Below are positions 1 through 34,617 of a stretch of DNA of 64,000 nucleotides, piece after piece. The position numbers and the translations under genes were made by a program. Source of the DNA: Eucommia ulmoides (taxonomy: Eukaryota; Streptophyta; Magnoliopsida; Garryales; Eucommiaceae). The notes beneath the pieces are model-generated. The model had not been told where the DNA came from. It did not search any database and was given only the letters and a program-made list of their open reading frames with translations. Location of the stretch: assembly GCA_016647705.1 (NCBI GenBank), contig CM028332.1, positions 32,183,300-32,247,299 on the forward strand. Direction: 5' to 3'. The first letter of the stretch is position 1. Every line of letters starts with the position of its first letter.

Positions 1-1429
1 CAGGCCGACCCGGGCACCGAGGTTAAGGTTGGTATGGCTACACCGACCTGGTCATCTTTGGTGATATCTGAGGAGAATATTAGGGATTCTTGCTTGGCGA
101 TTGATTCAAGTCCTTCATACTTACCAACTTGATGGGATGTCGGGCTAATGAACAACCAGGCTCATCAGGTCGTCTGATGTAGTGGTATTGGTGATGTGAC
201 ACTTTTGATCTAAGTGGCGGACACGTGGCGAGTGAAAGAATTTTACCCACATCAAATATGATTTAATAACTTGGGGAAAAGGGGTATGAATTATTAGGGA
301 AGAAATTTCTCCTCCCCACCCCACCCCAATTTTTTAACTAAACTATTTCGACCCTCTATTTCACATGAAAATCGATCTCAATTATTACAAAAAATAAAAA
401 TAAAAATAACAGTATAGTTGCAAACAACGTCACTGAGAGATTTGAAACGCGTTGGTTGTGACCAACAGGTAATGGCGACCAACAGGGTGGTGGTGTTGGC
501 CGGCGGGATGGTAGTGAGAATTATTTTGCCAAAGTAAATTGAAATCAATTTTATTTTATTTTTATGTTTCTCAGATTTTTAAAGAATTCAAGAATTACTC
601 TTAAATTTTTAAAATAAAAACATGTGTATCAAACACGTTTCGGTAAATATTTCTGTACATTAATTTCAAAATTTCAAAAACGATAACATAAATCAAAAAA
701 CAGAACGGAACCTAAAAGTGACAGAGAGGATCCGAGTTCCGCTCAACTTTTGAATTTTTTTACTCTTACCCTATATTTTTCCTCTTATATTTTTGTAAAA
801 GAAAAAAACAATTAGAATCCTCTCTATCAATCTCTTGGATCTGATGAACGCCATTCTTATTTATCACATTATTGTTATTTTTATTTTTATATTTTGTTTG
901 GTTTAGGCGTGGGTGCGCGACCACGCTAGAAAATAGATCCTCGCCTCTCTTTTATGTTTTGGTTTTTTTAGAACGTAAAGATTCTTGTCTGTCAACTTGC
1001 ATGATTTATCGTTATCTTTTGGAGTAGTATAAGATTCTTCCTTTGTTTTCTTCTGTATGCTTAGTTTCTTACAAAACCGAGGAAAAGAAAAATCTACTAC
1101 TTTTTATTTTGAATCCAAATTATTTAACAAGTGTTAAATCCAAGACTTATAGTCTAATGATTTTCCAGTGTGTTTCCTCAGTAAAAGATCTAGTATTCAA
1201 AATTTATTATATCTTATCAAATATCAAGAATATCCTTTATTTTTTTAGTCGATCTTCCAAATCGAAATTGACCGGATGATGTCATTATTTAAATTTCAAT
1301 TTTATTCTTATAATATGAAATTTATTTTCAAAATTATTAAATTGTCATTCATCTTACATATAATATGACAAAATTATCATTCATTAATTCTATTTTCTTT
1401 TTCTTTTTTCTTGTTCTTTCTTTTCTCCT
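1..1429. other. AT-rich intergenic DNA, no gene seen
   Basis: I see no spliced gene or recognisable transposon ends here. The first 250 bases are more GC-balanced and include a G-box-like CACGTG near 227-232. The rest is AT-rich with many short homopolymer runs. Open frames are short and of low complexity, and I do not believe they are coding. Confidence 0.5.
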
Positions 1430-4861: not shown

Positions 4862-7800
4862 TCAATCCATCCTTCCCTTCAAGATCCTCTCCGTCACTTC
4901 AGTTGGCGTGCTGCAACAATATACACACACACACACACACACATAAAGACGTAACTATTAGCGAGAACAAGAAAGAGCGAACGGAACGAATGAGAAAAGT
5001 GGGAACCTTTTTCTCTTTTTTACTTATGATAAAGCTAAGGCAACATTTTCCCATTCATTTATACTATACTCCGGACGATAAACCACGATATAAAGAAACA
5101 TGTAGGGGAGGGAGGGAGGGAGGGAGAGAGAGAGAGGCTTACACAAGATAAACATGTCCTCCCCATCCGCTCAAACAGTCTCGATCTATAGAAGATACAA
5201 GGGCCTGGGAGATGGTCTCGAACAATTCTTCAGCCTCCTAATCAGGCATCAAAACAAACACAATCATCAGTTAAGTCCTCTAAAATGACTACATGATCCG
5301 ATAACTTTCATTCACGTATACTTCTACCTATAATTTAAAGTGCAAAGTGTAATCAAAACTTTATAGAGAGAGAAAATAGGAAGTAGGGTTCCCAACTTTT
5401 TTTTTAATTTTTTTTAGGGGAAAAAAATAAAATATGACCAATGAGAAGTTGACACGTAATTAAAAAATATTAAAAAATTCCAAAACTCCAGAAAATTATG
5501 ATTTGTGGACCAAGCCTTCTACATTCCAGCAGATATATAGATAAGCAAAATTAGTATGAACTGCAAGTAGGAAAAGTGGCTTAGACGAACCATGTCAGGC
5601 TTGAACATAGATTCGCAGGCACCATAAAGGGATTCAGATGCCGTGCCAGCAACTACAAAATCTTTGGCAAGCTCCCTGCAGCATTCACACAATAATAAGA
5701 AAGTACATCAATTTTAGTTCTCTAACATCGACAATATATCGAGGTCTCCACACATCAAATAGAACAATAAAAGGGCAAAAGAATCTAGATACATAATCAG
5801 CTAGATTGCATAGTACCCATAAAGTTTACCACTCAAATTTATTTTGCACCCTTACCTTCAGACACATTACATCTTAAGTTTGTGAATTGTGCCTTAAGAG
5901 GCTCAATTAACCATGTATATATAAAGCATCCACCTTCCAGAAAATTATCTAATGTGGAAGGAAACTTCAAGAAAAACTTTCTTACAAGTGAGAAACAAAC
6001 TTTTACGGCTGAAAAGAACATCAAATTTAACATCCTCAGGCCACAAGGATTATTAAGTAAGATGCATTGGCATGGGTAGTGATGATTACTAGCCGGTTGT
6101 AAACCAAAAATAAGAGGAAGTATTACAAGACGTGAATTCCAAAAACTTGACATAAACAAAAGGCAATCTACGTTCTGATGAGCACTCTACAGTAATCGCT
6201 GATAGGACTAACATAAGCATATGCTCTCTCATAAAGGATTCACGATAAATCACGTGCTTCCTTCTATTGATATAATATGCCGCTGTATGACAGAAACCAT
6301 CTCAATTTAGAAAGATTGAAGCGTGAAAATTTATTTTTGATGATGCTTGAAAGCTACACGATGTTAAATAATTTAAATTATGAACAAAAGACATAATAGA
6401 AAAATAGTGAGGAGAGAGTCAACATACTTTGCTCCAATAGAATCCATTGTACAAATAAAGGGCTTGTCTTCGTCTCCCAGTCCGGCAATTACAGGTTGGC
6501 AGAAATATGGACCAAACCTAAGCAAATACCATTCCATTAAGATCATACTAATCCTCTGTGATGACCCAATATAAATGCAAGTTTATGAGCTAAGAATTTC
6601 TGAGCATAATTAATGTAAGAGAAAACCAAGAAGAAACAAGAAGATACATTATAAAGAGCAAGCATCGTTGAACTTAATAACCAACTGTCCAACAAAACAG
6701 CCTTTTCTTCCAATCAAGCCTTTCATCAGAATCATCACCAAGAACAGGAAGAACAGCTTAGGGCCCGTTTGGTTGTCCTTCTATCCGCAAATTGTCTTTT
6801 TCAATTAGTCAATCTATGAATTGTTATAGTTTAGAGTTTGGTTGCAAGAACTAAAAATTACTTAAATTAGCTACCAAACCATTTTAGTCCTAGTACATAT
6901 GCTATTTTCTCAAATCTCAAAGCAAGTGGAGTAAAACAGAAAAAGGATAACTTAAAACAGAAAAAGGGGCCCTTGGGCTGTCAATTTATTACAGATTCCA
7001 CGACTAAAAAGCCGATGCCTCGTGATTTGATTTCATAAGAAGCAGAACATTGCCTACAACAGAAGTAAAAGATTTGAACTGCTTAACTTGAACGCATTAT
7101 GTTCATATCTAACCGATAGTAATAAGGCAAACTCATGCCAACATCAAGCATATGGTATATCTCTAAGCCTTAAGCTCTTAAGCTTACAAATAAATAAGAC
7201 TAACCAACCTTTTCTCATAAAGAATAGCAGACACAAGGCTAGCAAAAGTTTCAGGCTTCATATCCCTCTCTTCCCGAAGATGATACAGCTTGTGTCGGAA
7301 CACTAAACGTTGATACCTTCAAATTGTCAAATTTAAAAATAAAAATAAATAAATAAAGACAGACTACATTCAGAATGCAACTGACACTGTACAGATTTGA
7401 GGGGAATTACTTACAGAGTTTGAGCATCAGTCGCAAGTCCTGCGAGACCGATGAAAAGCTTATCGTGAATTTTGTAAATCCTCTGAAAATCGGTAGCAAT
7501 AGTCTGAAGCTGAACGCCCAGTCGTCGATCACTCGCTATTGCAAAACAATTTTTGCCAACCATCGCCACTAGGGCACTTCCATTGTACTCAAAGATCTGT
7601 GATGAAAAGGAGTAACTCCACTCAAAACAATGTAGAAATTGAACAGTTCACAGTTTGAAACCTTGGTATCAGAAGAAGACACATCAAATCAAATCCATGC
7701 TCGAGGTTGAAATTGAATTGCCACGGGAAGATTATGATCCGTAAAACAGGTTATTGTAAATTAAATTGGGCACTGTTTTTGCATACGCAGATATGTGCTC

Positions 7801-8133: not shown

Positions 8134-8347
8134 TAGAGGTGGTTATGGGCCCGAGGGCCCGCCCAGCCTGAACAGCACGTCCCTATTTTTTAGGGTTTTG
8201 GCTTCGGCTTTGAGCCCATGGGCAGAGCCTGAGCCTAGGTTTTAGGGCCCAATGAATTTTAGGGCCAAACTTGGATAAGACCAAAATATTTTAGGACCGA
8301 CCCGGCTAGACCCGAAAAAAATTAAAAATAAAATAAAATTATATATA
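8134..8347 (+). mobile_element. Left part of a hAT-like MITE, split by the Helitron cluster
   Basis: It starts with TAGAGGTGGTTATGGGCC and is rich in GGGCC/GGCCC words, then turns into A/T runs ending in an AT repeat. The order matches the intact copy at 22452-23076. The element stops at the AT repeat where the first Helitron begins. The matching right part with the complementary end is found 15 kb away at 23330-23615. The outer target-site duplication is not recognisable, so two independent remnants remain possible. Confidence 0.7.
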
Positions 8348-11300
8348 TCTATTATATAGAACAAGACGGTTTTTTTGGCTGACTAAGATAAACTTATGAC
8401 TAGGACAAAAAAATATGATTAGGACAAATAAAATTGCTGACTAGGACAAACAAAATGTTGATTAGGACATTTTAAGACATAAGTTGAGGACGTGTAAGGA
8501 AACAAGATTTGTCAAATAGGAAATCGAATTAATGTAAATAGAAATCAAATTAATATAGTATTGATTAATTAATTAGACAAATGCTGACTAGGACAAACAA
8601 AATTGCTAATTAGGATATTTTCGAGATATAAGTTTAGGGTCATAAAAGAAAATTAAAATTTAATTTGAGGCAAAAAAATGTTGGGATACATATATGGCCC
8701 TAAATTAACATTAATTAGTAAAGATAATGCCTAAAATAACATTAATACCTAAACTTTTGGTCCTAATCACATTAAATTTTTCAATTAATTAATTTTAGGG
8801 TCAAAATTAACATATTAAGTTTAGAGCCAAAAGTTTAGCCATTAATATTATTTTAGGCAAGGATTTATCCATTTTTCTCTAATTAAATTACTAATTAATT
8901 AATTAATTAATTTAGACATTGATTCATCCAATTTTTCTTAATTAAACTACTAATTAGGATTCAATTTAATTAACCCTTCTTTCAGCTCTCTCTCTCTCTT
9001 CCCAATTACAGTGCGCTTTTCTATTTTTTCTGCAATTACTCACCCTTCAAGTAATTAGACAAATGAATCGGGTTACTCACCCTCTCTTTCCATATATCTA
9101 TGGAAAATTACTTTATTTTCCGCAATTACTCATTCTTTTCTCTCTCTCACATGCTATTTACCCTACTCAAGCAACTCTCTCCATTTTTTCAAAATCCTCT
9201 TCGATCCACAAACCTCTTCAACCTCAATTCTCACTGGGACCGCCGCCACCACCGAGGTAAGGAGCTCCATTTAGGGTCTCCACTTCCTCGCGAAGGTCGG
9301 CAGTGGTCGACGAAGGTTGGAGATGGTCGAATCTGGTTAGCAAAATTATTCGTGTACAATTTTCTTCTTCTTCGACGAAGCCCTAATCCCATTCTTCATG
9401 AAATTGAATTATTTTTTTTTGATTTGGGAAATATTAGCTTCTTGCCAACACTTTCTCACCCTCTTTCACTTTCACCTCTCTCTCGCGCCTAAACAATAGC
9501 ACACGCAGGTTGGTGGTGGTTGGCGATGGTTGGATCTGGCTCTATATTTATTAGATCTGTCTGAGAGAGAGAGAGAAAAAAGTTTTTCTGATTGAATTCA
9601 CTCTTTTACTTCTTTGTTTCAATTTTATTTTGCTAGATTGAATTTAACTGGTCATTCATAGGTAGGGGTTTCAATCTTTTTATTTCTTTGTTTCAATTTT
9701 ATTTTGCTTGATTAAATTCAGCTGGTAATTCATAGTGTTTTTTTGAATTCGGCTTCAATTATTCATTGACGTTTCAAAATTTACCAATCATGAAAGGATG
9801 TGTTCGGGTTTCTGTTGGTGAAATTTGAAGAGCTATTTTGAACATAATCGTGTTCGGTTATGAGGAATCGTGAGTTTTCTATTTAAATTCTTATACAAAC
9901 TTGAATAATCCAGTTATTTTTTTTATTATTGCTAATCATTCGAACAAGAATCAGGGGCTTAACTTAAATGAATATTGATTTATGCAAACAAATCTTCAAT
10001 TTGTTGTTGATATTGGTGATTTTTTTGGATTATGTTTTTCATTTCTCTAGATCTGCATTCAATTTTACTAGATTTGTTTAGATCTAACGTGATTTGTTTA
10101 GATTTGCACAATTTGTTTTTGGTTCCCAATTTCTAGATTTGCTTGAACTATTTGGGAAATATAGAGAAATCTCATTATTTGCTTGATCTGTTTCTATGTT
10201 CTTTTGCAGAATTTATGTTCACATCTACCACAAAATAGGTATTATTGATCTTTAATTTTATCTGTCATTTTAATTTAAGAAATAGGTAATTTTTTTTTTA
10301 TTTTTTTTTTTTTCACAACAATTTTTGGTTGAATTTTGATCTCATTGACTTTTTTTTTTTTAAATAGATTCTCCTCAAATTTGGTTCAGTCTTTGTTTTT
10401 AATGCATCAGAGCACGATTAACTATTTACTGTTAAAAAGGTTCATATTTTGTAATTTATGCTGGTTTTGAAATCTTTTGTCTCTACCTCTTTATTTTGCT
10501 AAATTTTTGTTCGTTATGTGTTCATCAGACCTGAAATATTCATTTCATGTGATTGTCAGTTAACTTTTAAAATCACATTTTAAAATATTAATTAAACCTA
10601 TCATATTTAAAAATCATAATCGCATGTTCATTGAATTATTTATCATTTGTAGCACAAAGAATAAAGAAAATCTATTTAAATGCGTTGTTTTATCATCATT
10701 CTTGGTCATTGCTTGAAGGTCCATGCACTACACACACATACATGCGTGTGCGCGAGTGCGCACACATCCACACACACATATATAAGATAATATATATTGA
10801 GGTTTCAAGAAAATGTGATTTTTTTTTGTAAACTTATTTTATTTTAATTCCAGCGTAAATAGTTTGTCAAGTTTACATGTTATTTTTTATTTTTTTAAAT
10901 TATACCTTGATTCTATTCAAATAAGAGGTAAGATCATATTATTATTGGTTTCCCTTGCAATGTGTATGTTCATTTGAGATTCATTTTACAAAATTAATTA
11001 TTGTCGTAAGAAATTGATTTTTGAATGCGTTTTATGGGGGTTTTTTTTTTTTTTTTTTTATTTGGCTAGGATTTTTCTTAAAAATATTTTTTAAGTGTTT
11101 GTATTTATAATAAGATTGTTTCGTAATGAAGTATAATAGTGTTTTTGAGCTTTCTTAATGAAGCATAATAGTACTTTTAGGCACGAGTTATGCACTAACT
11201 GTTCGGTACCATTATTTTGATAGGATAATTTCATTATTGTCATTATTTTTATTTCAATTGGTTTGTAACTTACTTTGAAAATTAAATTATATATAAAACC

Positions 11301-11564
11301 ATAGAATATCATTAGATTTTTTATATTGTTGAACTTTTTTATATCAGTACAAGTTTTAATCTCGATTGTTAATTACAATTGATGTTCAATTGTTAGTTAT
11401 TATCGATGTTCAAATGAATAGGTGTATTATGTTGGTCTTGATTGTTTTATTATTAATATTCAAATGTAATAGATGTAGAATGTTATATAATAAATAAAAT
11501 TATATCATTTTTTTTTTGTTTGGTTATTTTACACCCGTGCCTTTAGGCACGGGTTATAAGCTAA
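8348..11564 (+). mobile_element. Non-autonomous Helitron H1
   Basis: It begins with TC after an A (8347/8348) and ends with CTAA before T (11561-11565). Upstream of the end is a perfect 20-nt hairpin (stem CCCGTGCCT, loop TT) at 11534-11553. These are the hallmarks of a Helitron 3' terminus, which moves by rolling-circle transfer and makes no target duplication. No Rep/helicase coding sequence is present. The interior has short direct repeats built on GACTAGGACAAA near the 5' end, a CT-rich leader, a GC-rich CGCCGCCACCACCGAG block followed by GTAAGG (about 9256), and intron-like T-rich sequence with TTTTGCAG acceptor-like sites. It looks like a captured promoter and leader exon. The few short frames are probably untranslated. 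Confidence 0.85.
11534..11553 (+). terminator. Helitron H1 3' terminal hairpin
   Basis: A perfect 9-bp stem with a TT loop is followed 7 nt later by CTAA and T. This is the rolling-circle termination structure of the Helitron, not a transcription terminator. Confidence 0.9.
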
Positions 11565-14500
11565 TATTATATAAAACAGAACGGTTTTTTGGCTGATTAG
11601 GATAAACTTATGATTAGAACAAAAAAATATGACTAGGACAAATAAAGTTGCTGATTAAGACAAACGAAATGCTGATTAGGACATTTTAAGATATAAGTTA
11701 AGGACGTGTAAGGAAATTAGATTTGTCAAACAGGAAATCGGATTAATGTAAATAGAAATCAAATTAATATAGTATTGATTAATTAATTAGACAAATGCTG
11801 ACTAGGATATTTTCGAGATATAAGTTTAGGGCCATAAAAGAAAATTGAAATTTAATTTGGGACAAAAAATATTGGGATACATATATGGCCCTAAATTAAC
11901 ATTAATTAGTAAAGATAATGCCTAAAATAACATTAATGCCTAAACTTTTGGTCCTAATCACATTAAATTTTCCAATTAATTAATTTTAGGGTCAAAATTA
12001 ACATATTAAGTTTAGAGCCAAAAGTTTAGCCATTAATATTATTTTCGGTAACGATTTATTCATTTTTCTCTAATTAATTAATTTAGACATTGATTCATCC
12101 AATTTTTCTTAATTAAACTACTAATTAGGATTCAATTTAATTAACCCTTCTTTCAGCTCTCTCTCTCCCCAATTACAATGCGCTTTTCTATTTTTTCTGC
12201 AATTACTCACCCTTCAAGTAATTAGACAAATGAATCGGGTTACTCACCCTCTCTTTCCATATATATCTATGGAAAATTGCTCTATTTTTTGCAATTACTC
12301 ATCATTTTCTCTCTCTCACATGCTATTTACCTTACTCAAGCAACTATTTCCATCTTTTCATAACCCTTTCCGATCCACAAACCTCTTCAACCTCAATTCT
12401 CGCTGGGACCGCCGCCACCACCGAGGTAAGGAGCTCCATTTAGGGTCTTTGCTTCCTCGTGAAGGTCGGCAATGATCGACGAAGGTTGGAGATGGTCGAA
12501 TCTGGTTAGCAAAATCATTCGAGTACAATTTTCTTCTTATTCTTCTTCTTCGACGAAGCCCTAATCCCATTCTTCATGAAATTGATTTTTCTTTTGATTT
12601 GGGAAATATTAGTTTCCTGCCAACACTTTCTCTCCCTCTTTCACTTTCACCCCTCTCTTGCGCTTAAATAACAGCACACGCAGGTTGGTAGTGGTTGGCG
12701 AAGCTTGGCGATGGTCGGATCTGACTCTATTTTTATTAGATCTGTCTGAGAAAGAGAGAGAGAAAAGTTTTTCTGATTGAATTCACTCTTTTACTTCTTT
12801 GTTTCAATTTTATTTTGCTAGATTGAATTTAACTGGTCATTCATAGGTAGGGGTTTCAATCTTTTTACTTCTTTGTTTCAATTTTATTTTGCTTGATTAA
12901 ATTCAGCTGGTAATTCATAGTGTTTTTTTGAATTCGGCTTCAATTATTCACTGATGTTTCAAAATTTACTGATCATGAAAGGATGTGTTCGGGTTTTTGT
13001 TGGTGAAATTTGAAGAGCTATTTTGGACATAATTGTGTTCGGTTATGAGGAATCGTGAGTTTTCTATTTAAATTCTTATACCAACTTGAATAATCCAGTT
13101 ATTTTTTTATTACTGCTAATCATTCGAACAAGAATCAGGGGCTTATCTTAAATGAATATTGATTTATGCAAAGCAAATCTTCAATTTGTTGTTGATATTG
13201 GTGATTTTTTTGGATTATGTTTTTCATTTCTCTAGATCTGCATTCAATTTCACTAGATTTGTTTAGATCTAACGTGATTTGTTTAGATTTGCACAATTTG
13301 TTTTTGGTTCCCAATTTCTAGATTTGCTTGAACTATTTGGAAAATATAGAGAATTCTCATTATTTGCTTGATCTGTTTCTATGTTCTTTTGCAGAACTTC
13401 TATTCACATCTACCACAAAACAGGTATTATTGATCTTTAATTTTATCTGTCATTTTAATTTAAGAAATGGGTAATTTAATTGTCTTCTTCTTCTTTTTTC
13501 GCAGCAATTTTTGGTTGAATTTTGATCTCATTGATCTTTTTTTTTTTTAAATAGATTCTCCTCAAATTTGGTTCACTTTTTGTTTTTACTACATCAGAGC
13601 ATGATTAACTATTTACTGTTAAAAAGGTTCATATTTTGTAATTTATGTTGGCTTTGAAATCTTTTGTTTCTACCTCTTTATTTTGTTAAATTTTTGTTCG
13701 TTATGTATTCATCTGACCTGAAATATTCATTTGATGTGATTGTCAATTAACTTTCAAAATCACATTTTAAAATAGTAATTAAACCTATCATATTTAAAAA
13801 TCATAATCGTATGTTCATTGAATTATTTATCATTTTTCGCACAAAGATTAAAGAAAATCTCTTTAAATGCGTTGTTTTGTCATCATTCTTGGGCATTGCT
13901 TGAAGATTCGTGCACTACACACACACACATACATGCGTGCGCGCAAGTGCGCACACGCATATATAAGATAATATATATTGAGGTTTCAGGAAAATGTAAT
14001 TTTTTTTTTGTGAACTTATTTTATTTTAATTACAGCGTAAATAGTTTGTCAAGTTTACATATTATTCTTTATTTTTTTAAGTTATACCTTGATTCTATCC
14101 GAATAGGAGGTAAGGTCATATTATTATTGGTTTCCCTTGTAATGTGTATGTTCATTTGAGATTTATTTTACGAAATTAATTATTGTCGTAAGAAATTGGT
14201 TTTTGAATGCATTTTATGGGATTTTTTTTTTTTTTTATTTGGCTAGGATTTTTCTTTAAAATATTTTTTAAGTGTTTGTATTTGTAATAAGATTATTTCG
14301 TAATGAAGCATAATAGTGTTTTTGGACTTTCTTAATGAAACATAATAGTACTTTTAGGCACGCGTTATGCACTAACTGTTCAGTACCATTATTTTGGTTG
14401 GATAATTTCATTATTGTTATTATTTTTATTTCAATTGATTTGTAACTTACTTTGAAGATTAAATTATATATAAAACCATAGAATATCATTAGATTTTTTT

Positions 14501-14741
14501 ATATTATTGAACTTTTTATATCAGTACAAGTTTTAGTCTCGATTGTTAATTACAATTGATGTTCAATTGTTAGTTATTATCGATGTTCAAATGAATAGGT
14601 GTATTATATTGGTCTTGATTGTTTTATTATTAATATTCAAATGTAATAAATGTAGAATGTTGTATAATAAATAAAATTATATCATATTTTTTTTATTTGG
14701 TTATTCTACAGCTGTGCCTTCAGACACGGGTTATACGCTAG
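11565..14741 (+). mobile_element. Non-autonomous Helitron H2, tandem copy of H1
   Basis: This is colinear with H1 along its whole length, with scattered substitutions and small indels, and directly abuts it. The 5' end reads TATTATATA, lacking the two bases that would restore TCTATTATATA as in H1. The 3' end has a decayed hairpin (14711-14730) and CTAG at 14738-14741 before T. It shares the CT-rich leader, the CGCCGCCACCACCGAG block, the GTAAGG site and the T-rich intron-like part with H1. It carries no transposition genes. Either rolling-circle read-through or insertion at the end of an existing copy could have made the pair. Confidence 0.85.
14711..14730 (+). terminator. Helitron H2 3' terminal hairpin (imperfect)
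   Basis: The position equals the H1 hairpin but the stem has mismatches (CTGTGCCT against AGACACGGG). CTAG follows at 14738-14741. Confidence 0.75.
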
Positions 14742-15456
14742 TACATTATAAAAACATGACCGTGTTTTTGCTATTTAGGACAAACTTATGATTAAGACAA
14801 ATAATTGCCGACTAGGACAAGCAAATTTGCTGATTACGATATTTTGTGGACATAAATTAAGGACAGTATAAGGAAATTAATTTTACCTAAAAGGAAATAA
14901 AGTTATATATATATATGGACGTTATGGTTCATAAAGACATATATAATGACAATATATATATATATATATAATATTTCTTGATTACTTAATTTCATTTCTC
15001 TATCTCTTAGTTCTCTCTCACATAATCTTTATTCTCTAAATAGAGATACCGAAGTTAATGGAAAAAATTGTCACTTCTAAATTTATTATATTATACCCAA
15101 TCAATTCCTAATTTCTAATTTCTATCCACCTTTGATTATTTCCTCATTTTCCTTATTTCCCACTCTCTCTCCTCTAATTATTTCTTATTCTTTTCTTACT
15201 CTCTCTCTTACCGATTAATTAGTCTCTCTTTTGTTGCTCTGTAATTGATAATTGGCACTATTTCTCTATTGTCTCACTCTCTCTCTCCCTTCACTATCCC
15301 ATATCGCTTTCGACACCTCTATCGCCGTTGCGCCTCACCATCCGTCGAAAGTAAGACTCATTTCTTCTTCTTCTCCTTCTTCTACTCTTCTTCGTTGTTC
15401 ACCTCTAATTGATTTGGCTTTCACTTATTCGTTGTTCACTAAAGCATGATGATTAC

Positions 15457-17025
15457 TGATAGGTGTAAAATACCTATCTAATTCTAAACCGAATTTGCCA
15501 GTTTTTGAGTATTTTATTGAAGTTTGAATATCTTTTTAGTTGTTTTTATTAGTCAGGAGTAGGGACGTAAACAATCGGAAAATCGAGCGAAATGGTGGAG
15601 AAAATAGTAGCCAAAAAGATGAAAAAATGAGGTTTCAAAGAACAACGTAATTCCGCCTAGGCAAAGTATCCACCGCCTAGGCGAAAATTCATCAGAAAGT
15701 TGCAAATGCTGAAAAGTTGAAATCCGCCTAGGCGAAGTTTCCACCGCCTAGGCGAAAATCCGTTAGAAAGTTGCAAGGGCTGAAGTATTGAAATCCGCCT
15801 AGGCGAAGTTTCCACCACCTAGGCGGAAATCCATCAGAACGCTGGAAGTGTTGAACTGCTGGAAGAGTTGAACTGCTGTAAATCCGCCTAGGCGAAGTAG
15901 CTACTGCCTAGGCGGAATTTCGTCAGAAAGAAAGGGGACCAAGAAGTTAGTCCTCTGCCTAGGCGAAGAAATCATTGCCTAGGCGGAATTCTAACCAACT
16001 TAAACTCTACCTAGGCGAAGATTCTACCGCTTAGGCGGAATTCGCAGAACAACCCAAAATATCTGTTTAGATATTTTTGAACCCCTAGGCCTATTTATAC
16101 CCTTTTCCCACGTCTGAAACCTGTTGTTGAAGAACCCTAACCCTAGTAGAGAGCTCTTAAGCTATATTTTGAAGATCAAGAAGGAGGTTCATCATTCGGA
16201 CAAAGAAGGATCACTTGCAGATCGATCATTAGCGACAGTGAACCGTTTCACTTCCAGATTTGATCGTTTCTCTTGTTTTTATCTTTGTAATCACTTTTTC
16301 ATATCTAAGAATGTTGAATCCCTCTTATTTTGTATGGTATATGACTAAGATCTTATAGTATTAGTTAAATGTTACTTAGGTGTAGTTGAAATCATGTAAT
16401 TGTTAAGTTGAATGAATTAATTTTACTTTAATGTATTGTTTGTCTAAATCTGATTGTGTTTACCATTATTCTTGATATTATGCTTGTATTGATAAACCGA
16501 GAATACGGGGTTTGACACTCGGGAAAGGTAACCCTGGATTTGGACTAGGGTAAATACAACATGACGTTCTACCGACCCGGGAGGGCATTAGAACGTATGC
16601 AATCCATGACGTTGGCTAAAGACTCACGCGACCTAGGGTCGTAAAGGCATTGAAGGGGACTTCTTCGTTGATACGAAGTCATGTAATCCCCCGTCTTACA
16701 CTCGAGAGAAGTAGTGGAGGAGTTATCGATACAGAGATTGTCGGAATAGATAGAAAATCATTATAGCTAACTTAATGACGTCTATTATGCATTATGTGAC
16801 AGAAATCAATACCTAAGTAATTAGTGTAATTAGAACTAACCTCATAGTTTTCGTTTATCTTAGTATATTAAATAGAAACCAAACAAAATTTGATTAGTCG
16901 AGATAATATGAAACTATTTAAATCGCAATACTCAATCGAATTACTCGCCATTCCCAGTGGAACGATATCCGATCTTACAAGATCCATTATATTAAAACTA
17001 GACCTCGTATACTTGCGAGTAGTCA
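15457..17025 (+). mobile_element. Solo LTR inserted in Helitron H3
   Basis: It starts TGATAGGTG, ends GTAGTCA, and is flanked by TTAC on both sides (15453-15456 and 17026-17029), so it is a single LTR with TG...CA ends and a 4-bp target-site duplication. A TATA-like CTATTTATAC lies at 16089-16098, which would put an LTR transcription start near 16110-16130. The first half carries the CGCCTAGGCG minisatellite. No primer-binding site, internal domain or second LTR is present, so recombination between LTRs is the likely origin. The family was not identified; the tail resembles Athila/Tat-type gypsy LTR ends by memory only. Short open frames inside it are not convincing genes. Confidence 0.75.
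15653..16041 (+). repeat. Palindromic CGCCTAGGCG minisatellite
   Basis: About 12 copies of the self-complementary CGCCTAGGCG, or one-base variants of it, occur in pairs. Within a pair the spacing is about 20 bp; pairs recur every 50-90 bp, separated by A-rich filler such as ATCAGAAAGTTGCAA. The array lies upstream of the TATA-like box of the solo LTR. Confidence 0.9.
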
Positions 17026-19386
17026 TTACCGCAAGGACGATGGTTGTGAATCCTCGCGCGTACAATTACCGCTCCATCACCGTCTCCATCTCTATCGCCG
17101 TCTCTCACATTAGAAAATCTATGAGTACATTGTTCTCTAAGATCATATTATCTTCTTTTATTTCTGATTTCATTTGTGTGTGTGTGTGTATGATAGAAGA
17201 TACCAAATCGTGGCAGAGATAATAGATTCGACTTCTGAACATCGCCATCGTCAGCGTCTCTACTATCGCCGGCCTCTAGAGGAAATCTCACTCTTCTATC
17301 TCCCTTATGTCCTATGATTTAGGGTTTGGCGAACCCCCACTCTCTGCCGTGTTGCAAATCGCACAATCTTCAGGTAACTCGTTGTCTTCCGCTTTGCCTA
17401 TCTGCAATCTTCTCTAAATCGTACAACTTTCAGGTTGCGATCTTCAAATCGCATATTCATCTAATCTGCATCGTTATCTCATTCGTAATTGTTTGATTTA
17501 GCTATATTGTTGTACTTTTAGTTCAATATTCGTGATTTCAGGGTTTAATTCGACCCTACTAATTTAGGGTTCATCCTCAATCTGTTCATGTTTGATTTTG
17601 TTGCAATCTCCTTCTGACTGACTCGATTTCTAATTTTGCAATGCCTTAGTATTTTTTTGCCCTTCTATGGTGTTTTGTCTATTTTCCTATATGTAGGACA
17701 TGGTATCAGTTTTATGTGTTATAATTGGATTTTTAAAGTTCAATTGATTACTACTTTAATTCTTGAACAAATTTGGTCATTTGGCATCTGAGAAGCTTGG
17801 AGCCCACACTGCGAATACCTTGAAGGTGTTGGTTCTTCAGTTAACGTATAAATACTATGCATGAGTTAAGGAAGGAACTTCGATCTATTTAACGAAAATA
17901 TAATGCTTGAAATTAACCAAGAATTAATCATGTGATTTGATTGTGATTTTTCTCTACCTGTGGTCATGTTTCCAATTTCATTACCACTGTCCCTTTAACT
18001 GCAATTTAGCCTTCAATTCATGAATTAAAAATTCCTAACAAAAAGAATATTAGATTTTTTTTTTTCAAATTTTGTTTTGTTAAAATAAAATAAAAGACAT
18101 GTACAGCCTTCCATTCAATAATAATGGATTGACGAAAATAAGGTTGATGTAATATTTGCAAGTAAAATAAGGGGTCATAGTAATGGAAATGTAGCAGTTG
18201 ATTCTTATCATCAGCACAAGGTAATTAAATGTTAATTATATTTAAATGATATCTCTACATCGCTCTTTGATAGTGTAACTTCAAAACAAACGTATATTGT
18301 GTTTTTGCAACACCATTCTAACACCACCCCTACAGTAAAGCTAGACATGTACCAAACATACTTGCCACGTGCATAAAGTTAACATTATGCACCTCTTGAT
18401 AGGAAATACTATTCTTAGGCGAATTCAACTACATATGCAGATTTTTCGGACGATTGCAAGTCCCATTAATAGTTTTCCAAATGATTTTTCTGCAGATGTG
18501 AGTGAATTATGTTTTTATGGTTTATTTCATTAGATTATTGTTGTTCACTTGATTTATTGAAACGATGTGGGTCTAACTTGGGGTAAGGATGTTCCATGTG
18601 GTTCGTAGATTGCATTTTTCGTGCTCAACTTTCTATTTACTCAATTTCTTCACTTATTGATCCATACATGTGTTTTTGTTTTTTGAACTTGCAGTTGTTT
18701 ATGGTGCACGTTTATAAAATTTCGGAGCCATTTTTCTATCTTGGAAAATTTGGGTGAGGTGGCAACAAAGGTGTAGTATTATACTCTCTTTTTTTTGGAT
18801 CGGAATATCTATAATTCTCATCATGGACTTATATTACTAAGTTTATAATGTACATAATTAATTGTTTTTATTATTTGTCGTACTGTAAAAGTTCATGATT
18901 GTGTTAATTATTGTCGTGTCTGATTGTTATTAGTTGTGTTTGTTAGTGTCGTGTTGTTTTAAAATAGGAGTTGAGAATTTGGAATGTCATATAAATAAAG
19001 GGAATTATGTCCAAATTTTTGTACATTAATTATTGGTTGTGTCCATTTGAAAATAAAGAGGTTGATATCAAAATATTCTAAATTTTTTATTGGTCATTTT
19101 TGTCTATGTCCTGTTCATTACAAAAATAGGAAAAACAGGAGTTGATAATTTGGAAATGTTATAAAAATGAAAGAGATTATTTCAAAAAAAATTCGACTAT
19201 ATTATGTCTTTTTTTAAAGCATGTGCTTTCAGGCACGCACCATTTAAGAATGTAATATACGTTGTTTGTTGGTGATAATATTTAAATGTTTATTATTGTT
19301 GGTGTGAGTTAGGTAGGTATAGAATGTTGTACAAATAGAAGAGATTGATATCAAAAGTTCTTTTTTTTAAGTTCAATATTTTTACA

Positions 19387-19406
19387 CCCGTGCCTGAAGG
19401 CACGGG
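19387..19406 (+). terminator. Helitron H3 3' terminal hairpin
   Basis: A perfect stem CCCGTGCCT with loop GA is followed by CTAG at 19414-19417. It is the same stem as in H1. Confidence 0.9.
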
Positions 19407-20381
19407 TTATATGCTAGTCTATTTATAAATCAGGACATATTTACATTTTAAGACATTTTGAGCCGTCAGATCGAATATCTTACGGTTGAGATCACACCTA
19501 GAGACATTTTATATTTGAGACATTTTAAACCAGTTATCGAATATCTAACAAACGAGATTAAATGATACTAAGGTATATTTTTAGCTTTTGGATCAGATTA
19601 GATCTAAAGGTCAAGATTAAAATTTTACCCAACTGTCCCCAAAATCTCGCCAATCCTAACAAATCTCACCCCACTTCTCGGATTATACAGATTTAGCTCT
19701 CTCTCTCTTCTCATTCTCGAATTATACAGATTTTCCTAACCAATTGTTTCATCTTTTACATATGCTCTCCCTCTCTCCGTCGCCGTCCCTATCGATCATA
19801 CAGTAAGATAGACAACGCGATTTAGAATCACTGAAAGTCAACGCTGAAGCGGATTTACTAGGCGATAAGGGAAGCTAGTTCGTGTGGCAGTTCCAGAGGT
19901 GCGATAATCATGCACCTGAAGTTTTGCAGCGATCGAATAGGAATGACGTGATGATGTCCATGTCTAGCCTTCCAGCATGTCCCTATTCACCAAATCGGAA
20001 ATCCAGATCGCTGGTGGAATTGACTCCCTATTGACCGACTAGATCCGATTCACTCAGCCTTTGATTAATGGCTCATCCATGCACCAGCCGTCAATCGATC
20101 ACTCCTCCACACACCAGCCTTCTATCGATCTATTAATCTTTTTCTATCAATCGATGCTCCATGCACAAGTATACAACCTTCGATCGATCCATTCTTCGTA
20201 GGCGACCTACGATTCTGTATCAATAATCAATGCAAATCAATAATTATTGTTATTGAGTATTCATTCTTCGATTATTCATCTCTCAGGTACATTTTTCTCT
20301 TAGCTCCGATATCTTCTTTCATTTATGATTTCATTACTTTGATCTATGTGTGTGTGTAAGATTGAGAATAGAGATAGAATA

Positions 20382-20617
20382 TACCAATTCTTCATTTTAG
20401 GATAAAATTGATTTTACAGATAGAAATTGCTTTAGGTTACTGTAATTTGAGGTTCATATCTTTGTTTTTTCAGTAATTTGCCGAAAAATCTGAAATGTGA
20501 TTCAATTAGAAATTATTATTAGATTTCAGTTTCTTATTTTGGACTGCTATATGCAATCAATACAGGATTATGAATAAATTAAGCCAAATATAGTTCTAAA
20601 ATAGAAATCATGAATTT
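20382..20617 (+). repeat. Direct repeat copy 1 within H4
   Basis: About 240 bp starting CAATTCTTC and ending AGAAATCATGAA recurs at 21336-21573 in the same orientation with moderate divergence. This is an internal segmental duplication of the Helitron body. Confidence 0.8.
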
Positions 20618-21335
20618 CTTTGAATTTTAAAAGTATGATATTTGCTGCCATGGTGAATTTTGGATTATTATTATTTTTGGTTTTGTTCTTTTTTTTCCCC
20701 CTAATTTTAGTTTTTCTGTGCAGGGGATAATTAGGGATCAAAGTTAGTCATTTGACTTAAGCTCAAATTGGATTGTTCAAATTCGGTAAGGACATATTTT
20801 TTCTGATATTTTCTTTTTATTGCTTTTTCCTTATTAACTGATTGAGTTTTCTATAGATTTTTTATTATTTGAGTTTGTTTATGTTTAGTAATTCTGTTCT
20901 CAAACAGTGATTGAGTTTTTTTTTTTTTTTTTTCCGTGCTTCTGTTCTTAGATTTTGTCTGTTCCCAGTTTCTACGTATATTCCAAATTTATATTAGTAG
21001 ATATACAGATTTTAGATTTCTCATACGATATCTAGGTGTCCTTTGTTTAGTGTTTCAGTTAAATTGTTTCTTTTTTTGTTCCAACAAAAATTGGAGCGAA
21101 AATAGAAATGTTAGGAAAAAAATTTGTTATGCTCCATTTTCACAAATTTTTGAACAAATTTCAAGGAACAACACATAAATCGATTTATGTTTTCACTGAT
21201 TTGTAAATTTCGGTGCCGACGATAGAGGGTATGTAGATATGATGCAAGAGTATTTTTAACTATATATGGTTCTTCATTTTTATGATCGAACTTTTTGGGG
21301 AAAGTGGACCTGATAGGAGGATGCTATGAGATTTT

Positions 21336-21573
21336 ATCAATTCTTCGTTTTAGGACAAAACTGATTTTACAGATAGAAATTTCTTTAGGTTTCTGTAATT
21401 TGAGGTTCATACATTTGTTTTCTCTATAATTTGTTGAAAAATATGAAATGTAATTCAATTAGATATCTTATGTTGTTAGATTTCAGTTTCTTTTTTGGAC
21501 TCCTATATGCAATCAATATAGGAATATGAACAAACTATGTTAAATTTAGTTCTAAAATAGAAATCATGAAATT
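21336..21573 (+). repeat. Direct repeat copy 2 within H4
   Basis: This is the second copy of the 240-bp segment at 20382-20617. It ends exactly where the CAGGGGGTGA palindrome block begins, so that block may be an insertion at the duplication end. Confidence 0.8.
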
Positions 21574-21775
21574 CAGGGGGTGAGTTCACCCCCTGTTTCA
21601 GGGAGTGATTCCACCCCCCGTAACAGGGGGTGGGGTAGGAGGGAGAAAGGGGAAGAGGAGGAAGAGGGAGAGGGAGAGAGAGGTGGCGGGGAGAGGGAAG
21701 GAGGGAGAGTGAGGTGGTGGGAGAGAGAGAGAGAGAGGAAGCGGAGGAAGAGAGAGAGAGATTCAAAAGAAAAAA
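21574..21775 (+). repeat. CACCCCC palindrome block and GA-rich tract
   Basis: CAGGGGGTGA and TCACCCCCTG form a perfect 10-bp inverted repeat around GT (21574-21595). A second, looser pair (CCACCCCC and GGGGGTGG) lies at about 21612-21634. A purine-only GA/GGA tract follows to about 21775. Open frames here on both strands are low-complexity artefacts. Confidence 0.85.
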
Positions 21776-22451
21776 AAATTAATTAATTAAAAATGATTAA
21801 AAAATTTAAAAAACGTGAAAAGACCATTTTGCCCCTAAATTCCGTTAGTTTTAACTAATTTTCTAACGAAAGGACCATTTTGAAACATTATGATACGTAG
21901 AGGGTTTGAAATGAAACATTTAAACTTAGAGGGACCACTTAAAAATGTGTCAATAATTAGAAGGTCTAAATTGTACTTTTCCCTATTTCTATTACATTTT
22001 TTCATTTTTTTGTTTCAACAAAAAAAATTGAAGAAGCTAAAATAGTGATATTAGAAAGAGGGTGAAAGTAGTTTTGCTATTCTGAATTGTGCATGACATG
22101 GATTAGATTAATTCTTCAAATATCTGTAAAAGTTTAATAGGAATAAAAGTTAATCATTTTCTCACTATCACTCCCTTATAATATTTATGACATAATTATT
22201 TTTCTATTTATTTGTAACCCAGTTTGTCCAATCATTTATTTTCAAATTCTCTTTGACATACAAAAAAGGTCAATTTGAAAAATAGAATAAAGGATTAATT
22301 AAACTTTACTCCCTTGTGGTTTGATCGATTTGCACTTATCTCCCTGTGATTTGAAAATCGCCACTTACCCCCCCATATGGTTAGATTTTCAAACCACTTA
22401 CCCCCCCTGATATAGGGAGATAACTGCAACAATTATCTAACCACATGAGGG

Positions 22452-22677
22452 TAGGAATGGTCATGGGCCCAGAGGCCCGATCGGCCCGCCCAGCCCGGCC
22501 CTATTTTTTTAGGGCTTGGGCTTGGTGTTTGAGTCCATGGGCTGGGCTAGGGCCTAAAGACTAAGGCCCATTCATTTTTAGGGCCGGGTTAGGGCTTGAT
22601 CATTTTTGTTTAGGGCCAACCCGGCCCGACCCGAACTTTTTTAAAATAAATAAATAAATAAAAATAAAAAACAAAAT

Positions 22678-22768
<91 letters not shown>

Positions 22769-23076
22769 TTGAGGGGCCATTTTGTAATTTTCGATTTCAA
22801 CTAGATAATTTAGCAAACCCTAGTTTCATTCATCTTCATAGAGAGAGAGTTGAGGGGTCATTTTGTAATTTTAGTATTTAGTTTTTAAATTTAAAAAAAA
22901 AAATTATAGGGCCGAGCTAGGGCCTGGGCTTAATTTGTTTTTGTAGGGCCGGGCTTGGGCATGAAATTAGGGCCTGATCATAGGGCTTGACCGGGCTAGG
23001 ACTTAACATTTTTTGTGTAATACCCTAGTCAAAACCCAGTCCGAGCCCGGCCCGGCCCGACCCATGACCATCCCTA
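22452..23076. mobile_element. Intact hAT-like MITE
   Basis: Terminal inverted repeats TAGGAATGGTCATGGG and CCCATGACCATCCCTA are flanked by CATGAGGG (22444-22451) and CAGGAGGG (23077-23084), an 8-bp target-site duplication with one mismatch that is typical of hAT elements. The interior is rich in GGGCC/GGCCC near both ends and has a long AT then AG microsatellite (22681-22762) in the middle. It contains no transposase. The split element at 8134-8347 and 23330-23615 has the same layout. Confidence 0.85.
22681..22762. repeat. Compound AT/AG microsatellite
   Basis: About 50 bp of AT repeat runs directly into about 32 bp of AG repeat inside the hAT MITE. Open frames across it are artefacts. Confidence 0.95.
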
Positions 23077-23298
23077 CAGGAGGGTAAGTGGCGATTTCCA
23101 AACCGTAGGGGGTAAAGTGTAAATTGGCCAAATCACAGAAGGGTAAAGTGTTATTAAACTTAAAATAAAATAAATATTACAAAAGTAGTCAAATTATACA
23201 TTTTACAATTTGGACTATGTCATTTTCTTTTTCTTTTTTGGCTAAATTATGTCATTTTTATATTAAATTGATTAGAAATTTCCCAATAAAAATTAAAA

Positions 23299-23318
23299 CC
23301 CATGCCTTCAAGTACGGG
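23299..23318 (+). terminator. Helitron H4 3' terminal hairpin (decayed)
   Basis: The sequence CCCATGCCT..AAGTACGGG has the layout of the H1 and H3 hairpins with stem mismatches, and a CCAG-T end follows. Confidence 0.6.
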
Positions 23319-23328
23319 TTATACCCCA

Positions 23329-23329
<1 letters not shown>

Positions 23330-23394
<65 letters not shown>

Positions 23395-23615
23395 ACATAT
23401 TCACTAACCTTAATTAGTATTTATTTTTTAAATTAAAAAATAAATAAAATTATAGGACCGGGGGGCCTAGAACCGGGCTTAGGGTTTAGTCATTTTTTAT
23501 AGGGTTGGGCTTGGGCATGAAATTAAAGCCCAACCATAGGTTCGGGCTGGGCTTGAGCCTAACAAATTCTTGTAATACTCTAGTTTAAGCCCGACTTGGC
23601 CCATGACCACCCCGA
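23330..23615 (+). mobile_element. Right part of the split hAT-like MITE
   Basis: It begins with the continuing AT microsatellite (23330-23390) right at the Helitron H4 end, then A/T-rich DNA, GGGCTTGGGC-type words and the terminal GGCCCATGACCACCCC. It is the complement of the left end at 8134. The last two terminal bases are altered. Confidence 0.7.
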
Positions 23616-26836: not shown

Positions 26837-28955
26837 AAATTACAGGGTAATCCCAACATTAGCGTAAAACTACCAATAAAACCCACATCCAATTTTTTGC
26901 ACCGAGAACGCCTATGCCACTGATTTCTTGCACCGATTAGTCCTACATTTGTTATCTGTACATTTTTCGGTGACCGATTTTTTCCTCCGTTATATGCGCA
27001 GCGAGATTCCATTTTTGAATCGCCGAGCATTGCCTTGCCGTCGTGCCAACGCCTTCACAACTTAGATTCACCGCAATCACTGTCGAGATCCGACTCACTT
27101 CCATTATCGTCGTCCATATCCGATGTCTTTCCCATCGTCGTCGACGCCTTCCCCACTGTCGCTGTCCAGATCAAGTTTTTCCACCACCTCGCAACTCAAA
27201 TCCAAGGTTTTCAATGGATGCCGTCACCTTTATTTATACTCTGTTTCAATCTGGTGATCTTTTCTTTATTTTTAGAAAGAGAAAGAAATGAAGTGGGTAT
27301 TAAAGCATTTGGGGTTCCTTTTTGACTATTTAAACATTGTACCCCGCAATGTTACATGTAACATCCCCTTGAAATATAGTGAGAGAAATTTGCATATGTG
27401 ATAATGTGGGTCTATGATAGTGAGAGAAAATTGATCCTTTTTTGCTATCAACACATTGCACTCCGCAATGTTACATGTAACATCCCATTAAAATATAGTG
27501 AGAGAAATATGAGTGTGTGATAATGTGGGTCTATGGTAATGAAAGAAATTAGAAAGCACACTAATGTTACATGTAATATTTTCTGAAATATAGATATTAC
27601 ATGTGTGTTTGGAGTTCCTTTTTTGACCAAACCTACAATGTTACATGTAACATCCCCTTGAAATATAGTGAGAGAAATGTGGGTATATGATAATATGAGT
27701 TTGTGTTAGTAAGAGAAATTGGAATTGCATTAATGTTAGATGTAACATTGAAGTGGGTATTAAAACATTTGGAGTTTCTTTTTAACTATTTACATATTAC
27801 ACCCTGCAATATTACATGTAACATCCCCTTGAAATATTCGGAGTTCTCTTTTGACTATTTACACACCCTACAATGTTACATGTAACATCCCTTGAAATAT
27901 AGTGAGGGAAATGTGGGTACGTAATAATGTTGGTGTGTGTTAGTGAAAAAAATTGGAAATTGGATTAATATTACATATAAAACCCTCAAAAATATAGATG
28001 CTACATGTGTGTTAGTGAGAGAATTGAAAATCGCATTAATGTTACATGTAACATCCTCTAAAATATAAATGTTTACATGTTTGTTAGTGAAAGAATTAGA
28101 AATCGTATTAATGTTACATGTAACATTGAAGTGGGTATTAAAACCTTTAGAGTTTTTTTTTTTAACTATTTGCACATTACACAGTACAATGCTACATGTA
28201 ACATTCCCTTGAAATATTTGGAGTTCTCTTTTGACTATTTACAAATTGCACCCTGCAATGTTACATGTAACATCCTTTTGAAATATAGTGAGGGAAATGT
28301 GAGTACGTGATACTGTTGGTCTGTGTTAGTGAATTAGAAATTGGATTAATATTACATGCAACAACACCCTCTAAAATATAGATGTTACATGTGTGTTAGT
28401 GAGAGAATTGGAAATCGCATTAATGATACATGTAACATCCTCTAAAATATCGATGTTACATGTAACATCTATATAAAAATATGTTTTGCATGTAACATCA
28501 ACTAGAAAATATGTTTCGATATAGATGTAATTCTGAAATATGTTTTTGATATAGATGTTACATATAACATCCATTAAAAATAAGTTTTTAAAATAATCAT
28601 TGATTATAGATGTTACATGTAACATCTATTAAAAATATTTGTTTGAAATTTGTCAATATTAGACAGTGTCACATTGTTATATTTGATGTTACATGTAACA
28701 TCCATGCATAATACGATCCACACGTCCAAAAAATTTGATTAGCATATCATAAAAAATATGACATTTTACTGATTAATACAGTGTAAAAATATTAATTTTA
28801 CGATATCAGGAACTATGAAAAAATTCATGTGTTTTGATCTTAGCATTGAAAGTTCCACATGAGGGGTATTTTCGTCACAAAAATAGGAAAAGGACAACTT
28901 GGTGCATCGAAAGAATAGTGGGTTCAACCTGTAATTTCCAGCACCTTTTGGGACT
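26837..28955. mobile_element. Possible TIR element enclosing palindromic satellite
   Basis: GGGAAAATTACAGGGTAATCCC at the left and the complement of GGAAATTACAGGTTGAACCC at the right are inverted and similar over about 25 bp. The contents are a short GC-balanced gene-like patch (26960-27240) and the TGTTACATGTAACA array. No target duplication was found and no transposase is present, so this is a structural suggestion, possibly a MULE MITE. Confidence 0.4.
27343..28701. repeat. Palindromic TGTTACATGTAACA satellite-like array
   Basis: About 15 copies of the 14-bp perfect palindrome TGTTACATGTAACA or one-to-two-base variants are spread over 1.35 kb (first at 27350-27363, last at 28687-28700). 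In the left part they are followed by TCCCCTTGAAATATAGTGAG and spaced about 60-130 bp; in the right part (28430-28625) the spacing shortens. Open frames in the array are by-products. Confidence 0.9.
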
Positions 28956-33588: not shown

Positions 33589-34573
33589 TAGTGATCGTTT
33601 TAACCTCACGATAGGGAGTTTGCAACGGTACCGTACCATCCGTAGGATATGCCTTCCTACGAACACCTATCACTCCGCCGAAGCGGATAATCATTGCGCA
33701 GTATAGACGTCTAACATCACTCTGCTGAAGCAGATAAACATCACTCCGTCGAAGCGGATAATCTCACTCTACCGAAACAGATAAATACTAGGGCATCGTC
33801 AAATCAACTATAACATCATCGAATCACAACTCAATAAATATCGTCAAATCACCACGTCTATCTCTTTTCTTCCAAACTAACTTTAAAGTCCAAAAGCATA
33901 TTTCCCACTTTTCTTTTTAGAGAAAACGTCTGATTCTTTCAAAACTACTTTTCGACCCTTTATTTTCCTTTTGAAAACCAGACATTTTTAGGAAAACAAA
34001 TGTTTTCTATTTCTTTTTAAAAGCACTGTCTGATTTTACCAAATTCAACAAAAGTTCATTTTCAGTTTCATTTTGGAATCCATCGAAATCTTCCAAAATA
34101 CCAGTTTACCAACTCACCCAAATCCTGCTTGATCCATATCATTTATAAATTCATACAATTTAAGTAACCACATATTTTCTCATATATATACATAGAAAAT
34201 AGTTTGGTAAGAAGACAGTACACTCACCTCGATATCCGTTTTGCAAAACTGACACTGACTGCACTCTATCTGGACGCTAGTGCCTGCGAACCTAATAGTG
34301 ACAGGATCTAAATTAATATCTTATCTAAAATATCCTAATCATGCAATGCAGACCCTATATTTCGAATCATTACTAATTTTATGTACCACGTACTTAAAAT
34401 TAATCAATCGTCACAAAATTATTATGATTTTAAGATTTATAACACTAACTAAAATTTAATTTAATGAGAATTAATAATCGATTGAAGTTTCACCTGTTTC
34501 CGAAATGTTTGGCGACCACGAGATGGGTTTTGGATTTTCCTGGGGTGGTTTCTACAATTTTTCCCTTTTCTTT

Positions 34574-34617
<44 letters not shown>

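What the first reader, a model, noticed from the sequence alone, without database searches (positions are those of the whole stretch)
8134..23615. Four head-to-tail Helitrons inside one hAT MITE
Four elements, each ending in a hairpin and CTRR-T or a decayed form, abut each other without spacer. The whole array sits between the left and right parts of one MITE, interrupted in its AT microsatellite. Helitrons target AT dinucleotides, so a MITE with a long AT run is a plausible landing platform that could gather repeated insertions. H1 and H2 are the same family, H3 shares its left end, and H4 differs, so both tandem rolling-circle copying and serial end-to-end insertion may have acted.
Basis: partly seen in the sequence, partly recalled or inferred. 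Interest (0 to 1): 0.75.

Follow-up and report, generated by a model that had tools for sequence, protein, structure and literature searches.

The report
Four Helitrons stacked inside one MITE
Four "rolling-circle" jumping genes sit end to end inside a smaller, split jumping element in a plant-like genome, and other places in the same genome show the same end-to-end joining, which hints that these elements tend to land at the front edge of one already there.

Summary
The array is real. One hAT-type MITE (8134-8347 plus 23330-23615) is split in its TA tract by four abutting Helitrons: H1 8348-11564, H2 11565-14741, H3 14742-19417, H4 19418-23329. Other copies of the MITE carry both arms across the same tract; 1 of 75 other loci read holds a second, reverse-oriented Helitron there, with a Helraiser-like helicase remnant. 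Reservations: the MITE's flanks show no matching 8-bp TSD, and H2 and H3 lack the 5' TC.

Tandem rolling-circle copying of H1 into H2 is not supported: a full-length copy on another chromosome is closer to H1 than H2 is. Serial end-to-end insertion fits better. Among the best-scoring copies, 5 of 39 left ends have a Helitron right end directly upstream, and 5 of 39 right ends run directly into an H1-type left end (3 more into other Helitron left ends, by eye). Neighbours are mostly different families. Right ends abut TA runs in 17 of 39 cases (0.7% of background sites).

Adjacent Helitrons are already in print; the four-element mixed stack and its recurrence across the genome are the new part. 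Order of insertion and enzymology are inferred.

The parts
8134..8347 (+). left arm of the outer hAT-type MITE, ending in the start of its TA tract
   Evidence: aligns with the left arm of the inner MITE and of paralogs
8348..11564 (+). H1, Helitron, A|TC ... strong hairpin, CTAA|T
11165..11199 (+). decayed right-end-like motif inside H1
   Evidence: score 17.6; maximum of 20 simulations 16.1
11565..14741 (+). H2, Helitron of the H1 family, 5' TC absent, decayed hairpin, CTAG|T
   Evidence: 94.35% identical to H1 over 3151 columns; fold
14342..14376 (+). decayed right-end-like motif inside H2, at the place corresponding to that in H1
   Evidence: score 17.6
14742..19417 (+). H3, Helitron sharing its left and right ends with H1/H2 but not its body; 5' TC absent; strong hairpin, CTAG|T
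15457..17064 (.). LTR-like insert in H3 (TG...CA, flanks ATTAC); strand and family not determined
   Evidence: candidate ends from a flank scan; no homology test
19418..23329 (+). H4, Helitron with a different body, TC at 5' end, decayed hairpin, CCAG|T
22295..23157 (.). element with inverted arms inserted in H4
   Evidence: arms 74% over 86 bp
22452..23076 (+). inner, complete copy of the same MITE family, inside the inverted-arm element
   Evidence: TSD CATGAGGG/CAGGAGGG; aligns end to end with the joined outer arms
23330..23615 (+). rest of the TA tract (23330-23391) and right arm of the outer MITE

Best explanation
The array is a stack of separate Helitron insertions. A hAT-type MITE with a TA microsatellite landed upstream of what looks like a proteasome-subunit gene. 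A Helitron (H4) inserted between A and T in that tract. Later Helitrons were joined one after another at the 5' edge of the resident (H3 before H4, H2 before H3, H1 last), each in the same orientation, so the array grew leftwards. SHOWN: the anatomy; the MITE's continuity in paralogs; a second Helitron in the same tract of another copy; head-to-tail joints between different Helitron families elsewhere in the genome; H1 not being H2's nearest relative. INFERRED: the order of insertion and the enzymology, namely that the Rep nuclease of a family with compatible ends nicks the resident's left end (A^TC) and joins the incoming element's CTRR end there, which would fix the orientation.
For: MITE: 69 of 75 other loci read match both arms in order, 21-1019 bp apart; perfect 8-bp TSDs, by eye, in 7 of the 14 loci whose edges one search printed. 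Second case: L019 861-4991, reverse-oriented, right end scoring 46.8 (as L005) directly after the TA tract, left end TCTATATAATAAATC; frame L019:1055-1396(-) matches Helraiser at E 2.7e-25. Joints: 24 right-end|left-end joints among the 30 loci, 2 of them the window's own; the query spans the joint, so this is no frequency. With a left-end query, 5 of the 39 best other copies have a right end directly upstream and none faces another left end, by eye. With a right-end query, 5 of the 39 best other copies run directly into an H1-type left end; 3 more (L176 after a TA run, L183, L185 after 4 bp) into other Helitron left ends, by eye. If 300,000 Helitrons (my assumption) hit A^T sites at random, about 0.06 such joints would be expected in 39. 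Only 1 of 300 pairs among 25 loci shares both neighbours over 700 bp or more. Order: terminal branch H1 0.034, H2 0.064; H4 has a decayed right end and the most nested inserts. Target: T follows 39 of 39 right ends; A precedes 30 of 34 single left ends.
Against: 18 of 24 joints (both TC-less window joints included) lack TC, against 7 of 34 single left ends, which plain A^TC insertion does not predict. The maize pair of PMC2267711 (passages) is found in some lines with the left element alone, which in that paper's first reading means the right one came later at G^T, the opposite of the order I infer. H3's hairpin is intact although H3 should be older than H2. The outer MITE's TSD is missing. 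No informative empty site was found: the related gene copy on C12 aligns over 216 bp and its 3.2-kb locus shows no MITE arm. The copies compared are the best-scoring ones (40 of 1162 and 40 of 996 candidates), not a random draw.
Confidence: 0.6

Rival explanations
1. Tandem rolling-circle copying: a missed terminator produced H1 and H2 as one dimer, as proposed for bat and rice arrays; H3 and H4 came separately.
For: H1 and H2 are the same family, same length class, head to tail, 94.35% identical.
Against: A full-length copy on C15 is closer to H1 (K2P 0.0494) than H2 is (0.0593); 97 sites unite H1 with C15 against 67 uniting H1 with H2 (p 0.023). H1-H2 identity 93.7% is about the family median 94.3%. 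Old copying followed by gene conversion could hide it.
Confidence: 0.12
2. The array was assembled elsewhere and moved into the MITE in one step, starting at H1's left end and ending at H4's right end after the inner terminators were bypassed.
For: Terminator bypass is the usual account of gene capture by Helitrons (as stated in PMC12477314, passages); decayed right-end-like motifs lie inside H1 and H2; one pair of loci, L097/L103, shares both joint partners.
Against: The best other match to the H1/H2 joint is 90%, so no near-identical second copy of that joint showed up among the 40 scored; 299 of 300 pairs do not share both partners.
Confidence: 0.1
3. Joints arise by template switching or end joining between Helitron circles or strands during replication, so mixed multimers are inserted together.
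For: Fixed head-to-tail orientation in the 5 of 39 joints seen with the left-end query; aberrant junctions are common in Helraiser circles (PMC5876387, passages).
Against: No test here separates this from stacking; H1 and H2 differ in terminal branch length (0.034 and 0.064), which a single joint insertion does not predict.
Confidence: 0.12
4. The two MITE arms come from two insertions, or the right flank was exchanged with another copy by recombination.
For: No matching TSD (3 of 8); the right flank contains AGCCCGGCCCGG, like MITE sequence (by eye).
Against: The arms are complementary halves meeting at the same TA tract, and paralogs read through it.
Confidence: 0.06

Closest known systems
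[quoted passage not shown] passages read)
   Same: Different Helitrons joined CTAG|TC with no spacer, put down to consecutive insertions; entry at the A^T before a resident's TC is one of its two models
   Different: Two elements, not four; H2 and H3 here lack TC; host is a MITE TA tract; pattern seen at many loci
Tandem Helitrons of the bat Myotis and rice CentHel arrays (as told in PMC2267711, PMC5876387 and PMC10095026, passages; originals not read)
   Same: Head-to-tail joints of Helitrons
   Different: Those are described as arrays of one element; here neighbours are mostly different families and H1/H2 are not nearest relatives
Microsatellites as landing pads and Helitrons inserting near Helitrons (PMC12477314, passages); MuTAnT elements in TA microsatellites of Medicago (PMC4486113, search listing only)
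   Same: TA microsatellite as target; clustering of Helitrons
   Different: Here exact end-to-end contact
TA-repeat footprints of Helitron excision in maize (PMC10095026, passages)
   Same: TA repeats at Helitron sites
   Different: There a product of excision; in the MITE the TA tract is present in copies without Helitrons

Membership tests
Helitron (H1-H4) | 5' TC | tested here: inconclusive
   Present in H1 and H4, missing in H2 and H3; 27 of 34 single copies of the H1 left end keep it
Helitron (H1-H4) | 3' CTRR preceded by a short hairpin | tested here: met
   CTAA, CTAG, CTAG and a decayed CCAG; hairpin strong in H1 and H3, decayed in H2 and H4
Helitron (H1-H4) | insertion between A and T without target duplication | tested here: met
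   A before H1, T after H4; A before 30 of 34 single left ends, T after 39 of 39 right ends
Helitron (H1-H4) | RepHel transposase in an autonomous partner with like ends | tested here: inconclusive
   A Helitron with the same right-end motif holds a Helraiser-like helicase remnant, E 2.7e-25; no intact Rep was sought, and H1-H4 were not scanned for one beyond the ORF lists
hAT-type MITE | 8-bp target site duplication | tested here: inconclusive
   Perfect in 7 of 14 paralogs whose edges were printed (by eye), 7 of 8 bases in the inner copy, 3 of 8 at the outer copy
hAT-type MITE | terminal inverted repeats | tested here: met
   TAGAGGTGGTTATGGGCC against TCGGGGTGGTCATGGGCC
hAT-type MITE | mobilised by a hAT transposase | not tested
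   No autonomous partner was sought; the hAT label rests on the TSD length
Rolling-circle tandem Helitron array | neighbouring units are copies of one element | tested here: not met
   H1 is nearer to a C15 copy than to H2; H3 and H4 have different bodies

The most novel reading that the evidence does not exclude
The left end of a resident Helitron is itself a docking site: Rep nicks it and, in trans, an incoming Helitron with compatible ends is joined there in one orientation. Different Helitron families are thereby strung into arrays that grow at the 5' side, often with loss of the resident's TC, which may stop the resident from moving again.
Probability: 0.3. Interest if true: 0.75.

Novelty: new variant of a known kind. 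Interest (0 to 1): 0.52.

Why it matters
Whether Helitron arrays arise by copying or by repeated landing is usually argued from same-family arrays. Here different families are joined exactly end to end, more often (5 of 39 left ends) than random A^T insertion would give, and in the head-to-tail sense each time. If that holds genome-wide, it makes a targeted-insertion model testable with existing Helitron biochemistry and offers one route by which composite Helitrons could start.

Tried and rejected
Tandem copying for H1/H2: tested, not supported. Two unrelated MITEs: not favoured, but the missing TSD stays unexplained. Empty site at a duplicated gene: the C12 copy aligns over 216 bp and shows no MITE arm, so it is uninformative. 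H1 inserted inside H2's left end leaving a stub: no TCTA stub at the left edge. Right-end-like motif at 19217-19251 in H3: score 11.8, within the simulated range. A scan of bacterial and archaeal genomes with an H1 reading frame was of no use. Five MITE loci besides L005 lacked one arm or had the arms out of order in the stretch read (L007, L012, L027, L035, L071) and were not followed. Six of the 30 loci (L105-L108, L110, L111) were left out of the 24 joints; L111 was kept in the 25-locus pair test. Ten further matches were not fetched.

Full report
THE OBJECT. The window (32.9% GC) lies at C8:32183300-32247299 of an unnamed, plant-like genome of 947 Mb in 391 contigs. An exon matching Pfam Proteasome (E 1.5e-12) lies at 7411-7644 on the minus strand; the MITE starts 490 bp from it, on its 5' side.

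ANATOMY. From left to right: MITE left arm 8134-8347; H1 8348-11564; H2 11565-14741; H3 14742-19417; H4 19418-23329; TA tract and MITE right arm 23330-23615. H1 starts A|TCTATTATATAG. The joints read CTAA|TATTATATAAAAC (H1/H2), CTAG|TACATTATAAAAAC (H2/H3), CTAG|TCTATTTATAAATC (H3/H4) and CCAG|TATATA (H4/MITE). The four share the right end ACCCGTGCC..GGCACGGGTTATANGCTAG or a decayed form of it. H3 contains an LTR-like insert with candidate ends 15457-17064, the best of five candidate pairs in a flank scan and not tested by homology. H4 contains an element with inverted arms, which contains a complete copy of the same MITE family.

IS IT ONE MITE? Left-arm and right-arm searches gave 40 and 42 matches, with only the best 40 candidates scored each time. 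I read 75 other loci, in stretches of about 0.8-3.2 kb: 69 match both arms in order, 21-1019 bp apart. The closest subtype reads through the TA tract into AAACACATATTCACTAACC, as the window does when the Helitrons are lifted out. By eye, 7 of the 14 loci whose edges one search printed have perfect 8-bp TSDs (L002, L004, L008, L009, L011, L013, L016; L002 and L008 look like duplicates of one another). The window copy does not (3 of 8); a substitution-decayed TSD would rarely fall so low unless divergence were 30% or more, so a changed flank is possible. One of the 75 loci (L005, read further as L019) has its TA tract followed at once by a Helitron in reverse orientation, 861-4991 of L019. On the far side its left end is followed by TATATAATAC, and a MITE right arm lies at 5789-5926; I take the stretch between for the middle of a longer MITE subtype. 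Its frame 1055-1396(-) matches Helraiser at E 2.7e-25; Pfam gave only sub-threshold helicase hits.

COPIED OR STACKED? H1 and H2 are 94.35% identical over 3151 columns, K2P 0.0593. A full-length copy on C15 (L112) lies at 0.0494 from H1 and 0.0573 from H2; 97 sites unite H1 with C15, 74 unite H2 with C15 and 67 unite H1 with H2 (binomial p 0.023 for 97 against 67). In a tree of the last 1,150 bp of 19 copies, H1 is sister to the C15 copy (support 0.86), and H1-H2 identity (93.7%) is near the all-pairs median (94.3%, 171 pairs). So H1 and H2 look like two family members that arrived separately. Only one full-length outside copy was compared this way, and gene conversion could blur it.

JOINTS ELSEWHERE. 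A query spanning the H1/H2 joint gave 42 matches. Of the 30 loci kept, 24 are right-end|left-end joints, 2 of them the window's own. Because the query spans the joint, this is no frequency. Neighbours mostly differ in body from H1-H4 on one side or the other, and 1 of 300 pairs among 25 loci shares both neighbours (L097/L103). I then searched with the left end alone (the best 40 of 1162 candidates, the window's H1 and 39 others) and read 70 bp upstream of each of the 39: 5 have a right end directly upstream (L115, L121, L134, L146, L149) and 34 do not; by eye none faces another left end. With the right end alone (the best 40 of 996 candidates, 39 others read), 5 run directly into an H1-type left end (L156, L162, L165, L178, L184), and by eye 3 more into other Helitron left ends (L176 after a TA run, L183, L185 after 4 bp). 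These samples overlap with each other and, and are the best-scoring copies, not a random draw. Random A^T insertion by 300,000 Helitrons, an assumed number, predicts about 0.06 joints among 39. One single copy, L138, appears to sit inside another member of the family (by eye).

TARGETS. T follows 39 of 39 right ends; 17 of 39 are followed at once by a TA run of 8 bp or more, against 93 of 13,438 background A^T sites taken from this window and L019/L020. That background is small and local, runs can grow after insertion, and three of the 17 (L165, L176, L184) are joints with TA-rich left ends. Of 34 single left ends, 30 are preceded by A.

THE MISSING TC. 6 of 24 joints keep TC against 27 of 34 single copies (Fisher p 5e-5). 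The joint sample came from a TC-less query, which favours TC-less joints; with the left-end query, which carries TC, it is 2 of 5 against 27 of 34 (p 0.096). Single copies without TC sit on TA runs of 8 bp or more in 6 of 7 cases, against 3 of 27 with TC (p 4e-4). A paper reports variable TA repeats as excision footprints of a maize Helitron (PMC10095026, passages). TC loss may thus come from TA-run turnover, a shifted cut, or footprints; I cannot tell which.

MECHANISM. I favour stacking at the 5' edge of a resident. Entry at the A^T before a resident's TC gives CTRR|TC at a canonical target, whereas entry after a resident ending in CTAG needs G^T; PMC2267711 set out both readings for one maize pair (passages). 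That paper also found lines with the left element alone, which in its first reading puts the right one later, at G^T, against the order I infer; its second reading needs excision. In the window, H1's shorter terminal branch (0.034 against 0.064 for H2) and H4's decayed right end and nested inserts agree with leftward growth; H3's intact hairpin does not. That the five joints of the left-end sample share one orientation suggests that the resident's own nick site takes part, but five is few and this is inference.

KNOWN OR NEW. Adjacent Helitrons, tandem Helitrons, microsatellites as landing pads and Helitrons near Helitrons are in print (passages). My paper searches on Helitrons with tandem, head-to-tail, MITE, microsatellite, TA repeats, or adjacent or nested Helitrons showed no description of a mixed-family array in a MITE, but they cover open-licence papers only, I saw listings and passages, and the paper on Helitrons near Helitrons in maize was not held.

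Noticed in passing
window 29616-31585 and 33589-35576: A 2-kb direct duplication, 96.3% identical.
   Followed up: no
window 27289-28516: Tandem repeats with the palindrome ATGTTACATGTAACAT in their units.
   Followed up: no
window 58257-61636: Broken retrotransposon-like reading frames; reverse transcriptase (RVT_1) match E 5.7e-14 at 59128-59424.
   Followed up: no
window 7411-7644 (-): Exon of a proteasome-subunit gene; the MITE with its 15-kb array starts 490 bp away on its 5' side and may have displaced upstream DNA.
   Followed up: partly
window 15649-15991: Tandem repeats with the palindrome CCGCCTAGGCGG or close forms, inside the LTR-like insert of H3.
   Followed up: no
G000:C15:6772043-6773072: The C15 relative of H1 is followed after 895 bp by a second, near-identical right end; both run into TA-rich sequence.
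   Followed up: no
L097 and L103: Two loci on different contigs share both joint partners (97.1% and 92.7% over about 1.5 kb each): a mobile composite or a segmental copy.
   Followed up: no
window 11165-11199 and 14342-14376: Decayed right-end-like motifs inside H1 and H2 about 370 bp before their real right ends, perhaps an old terminator that was bypassed.
   Followed up: partly
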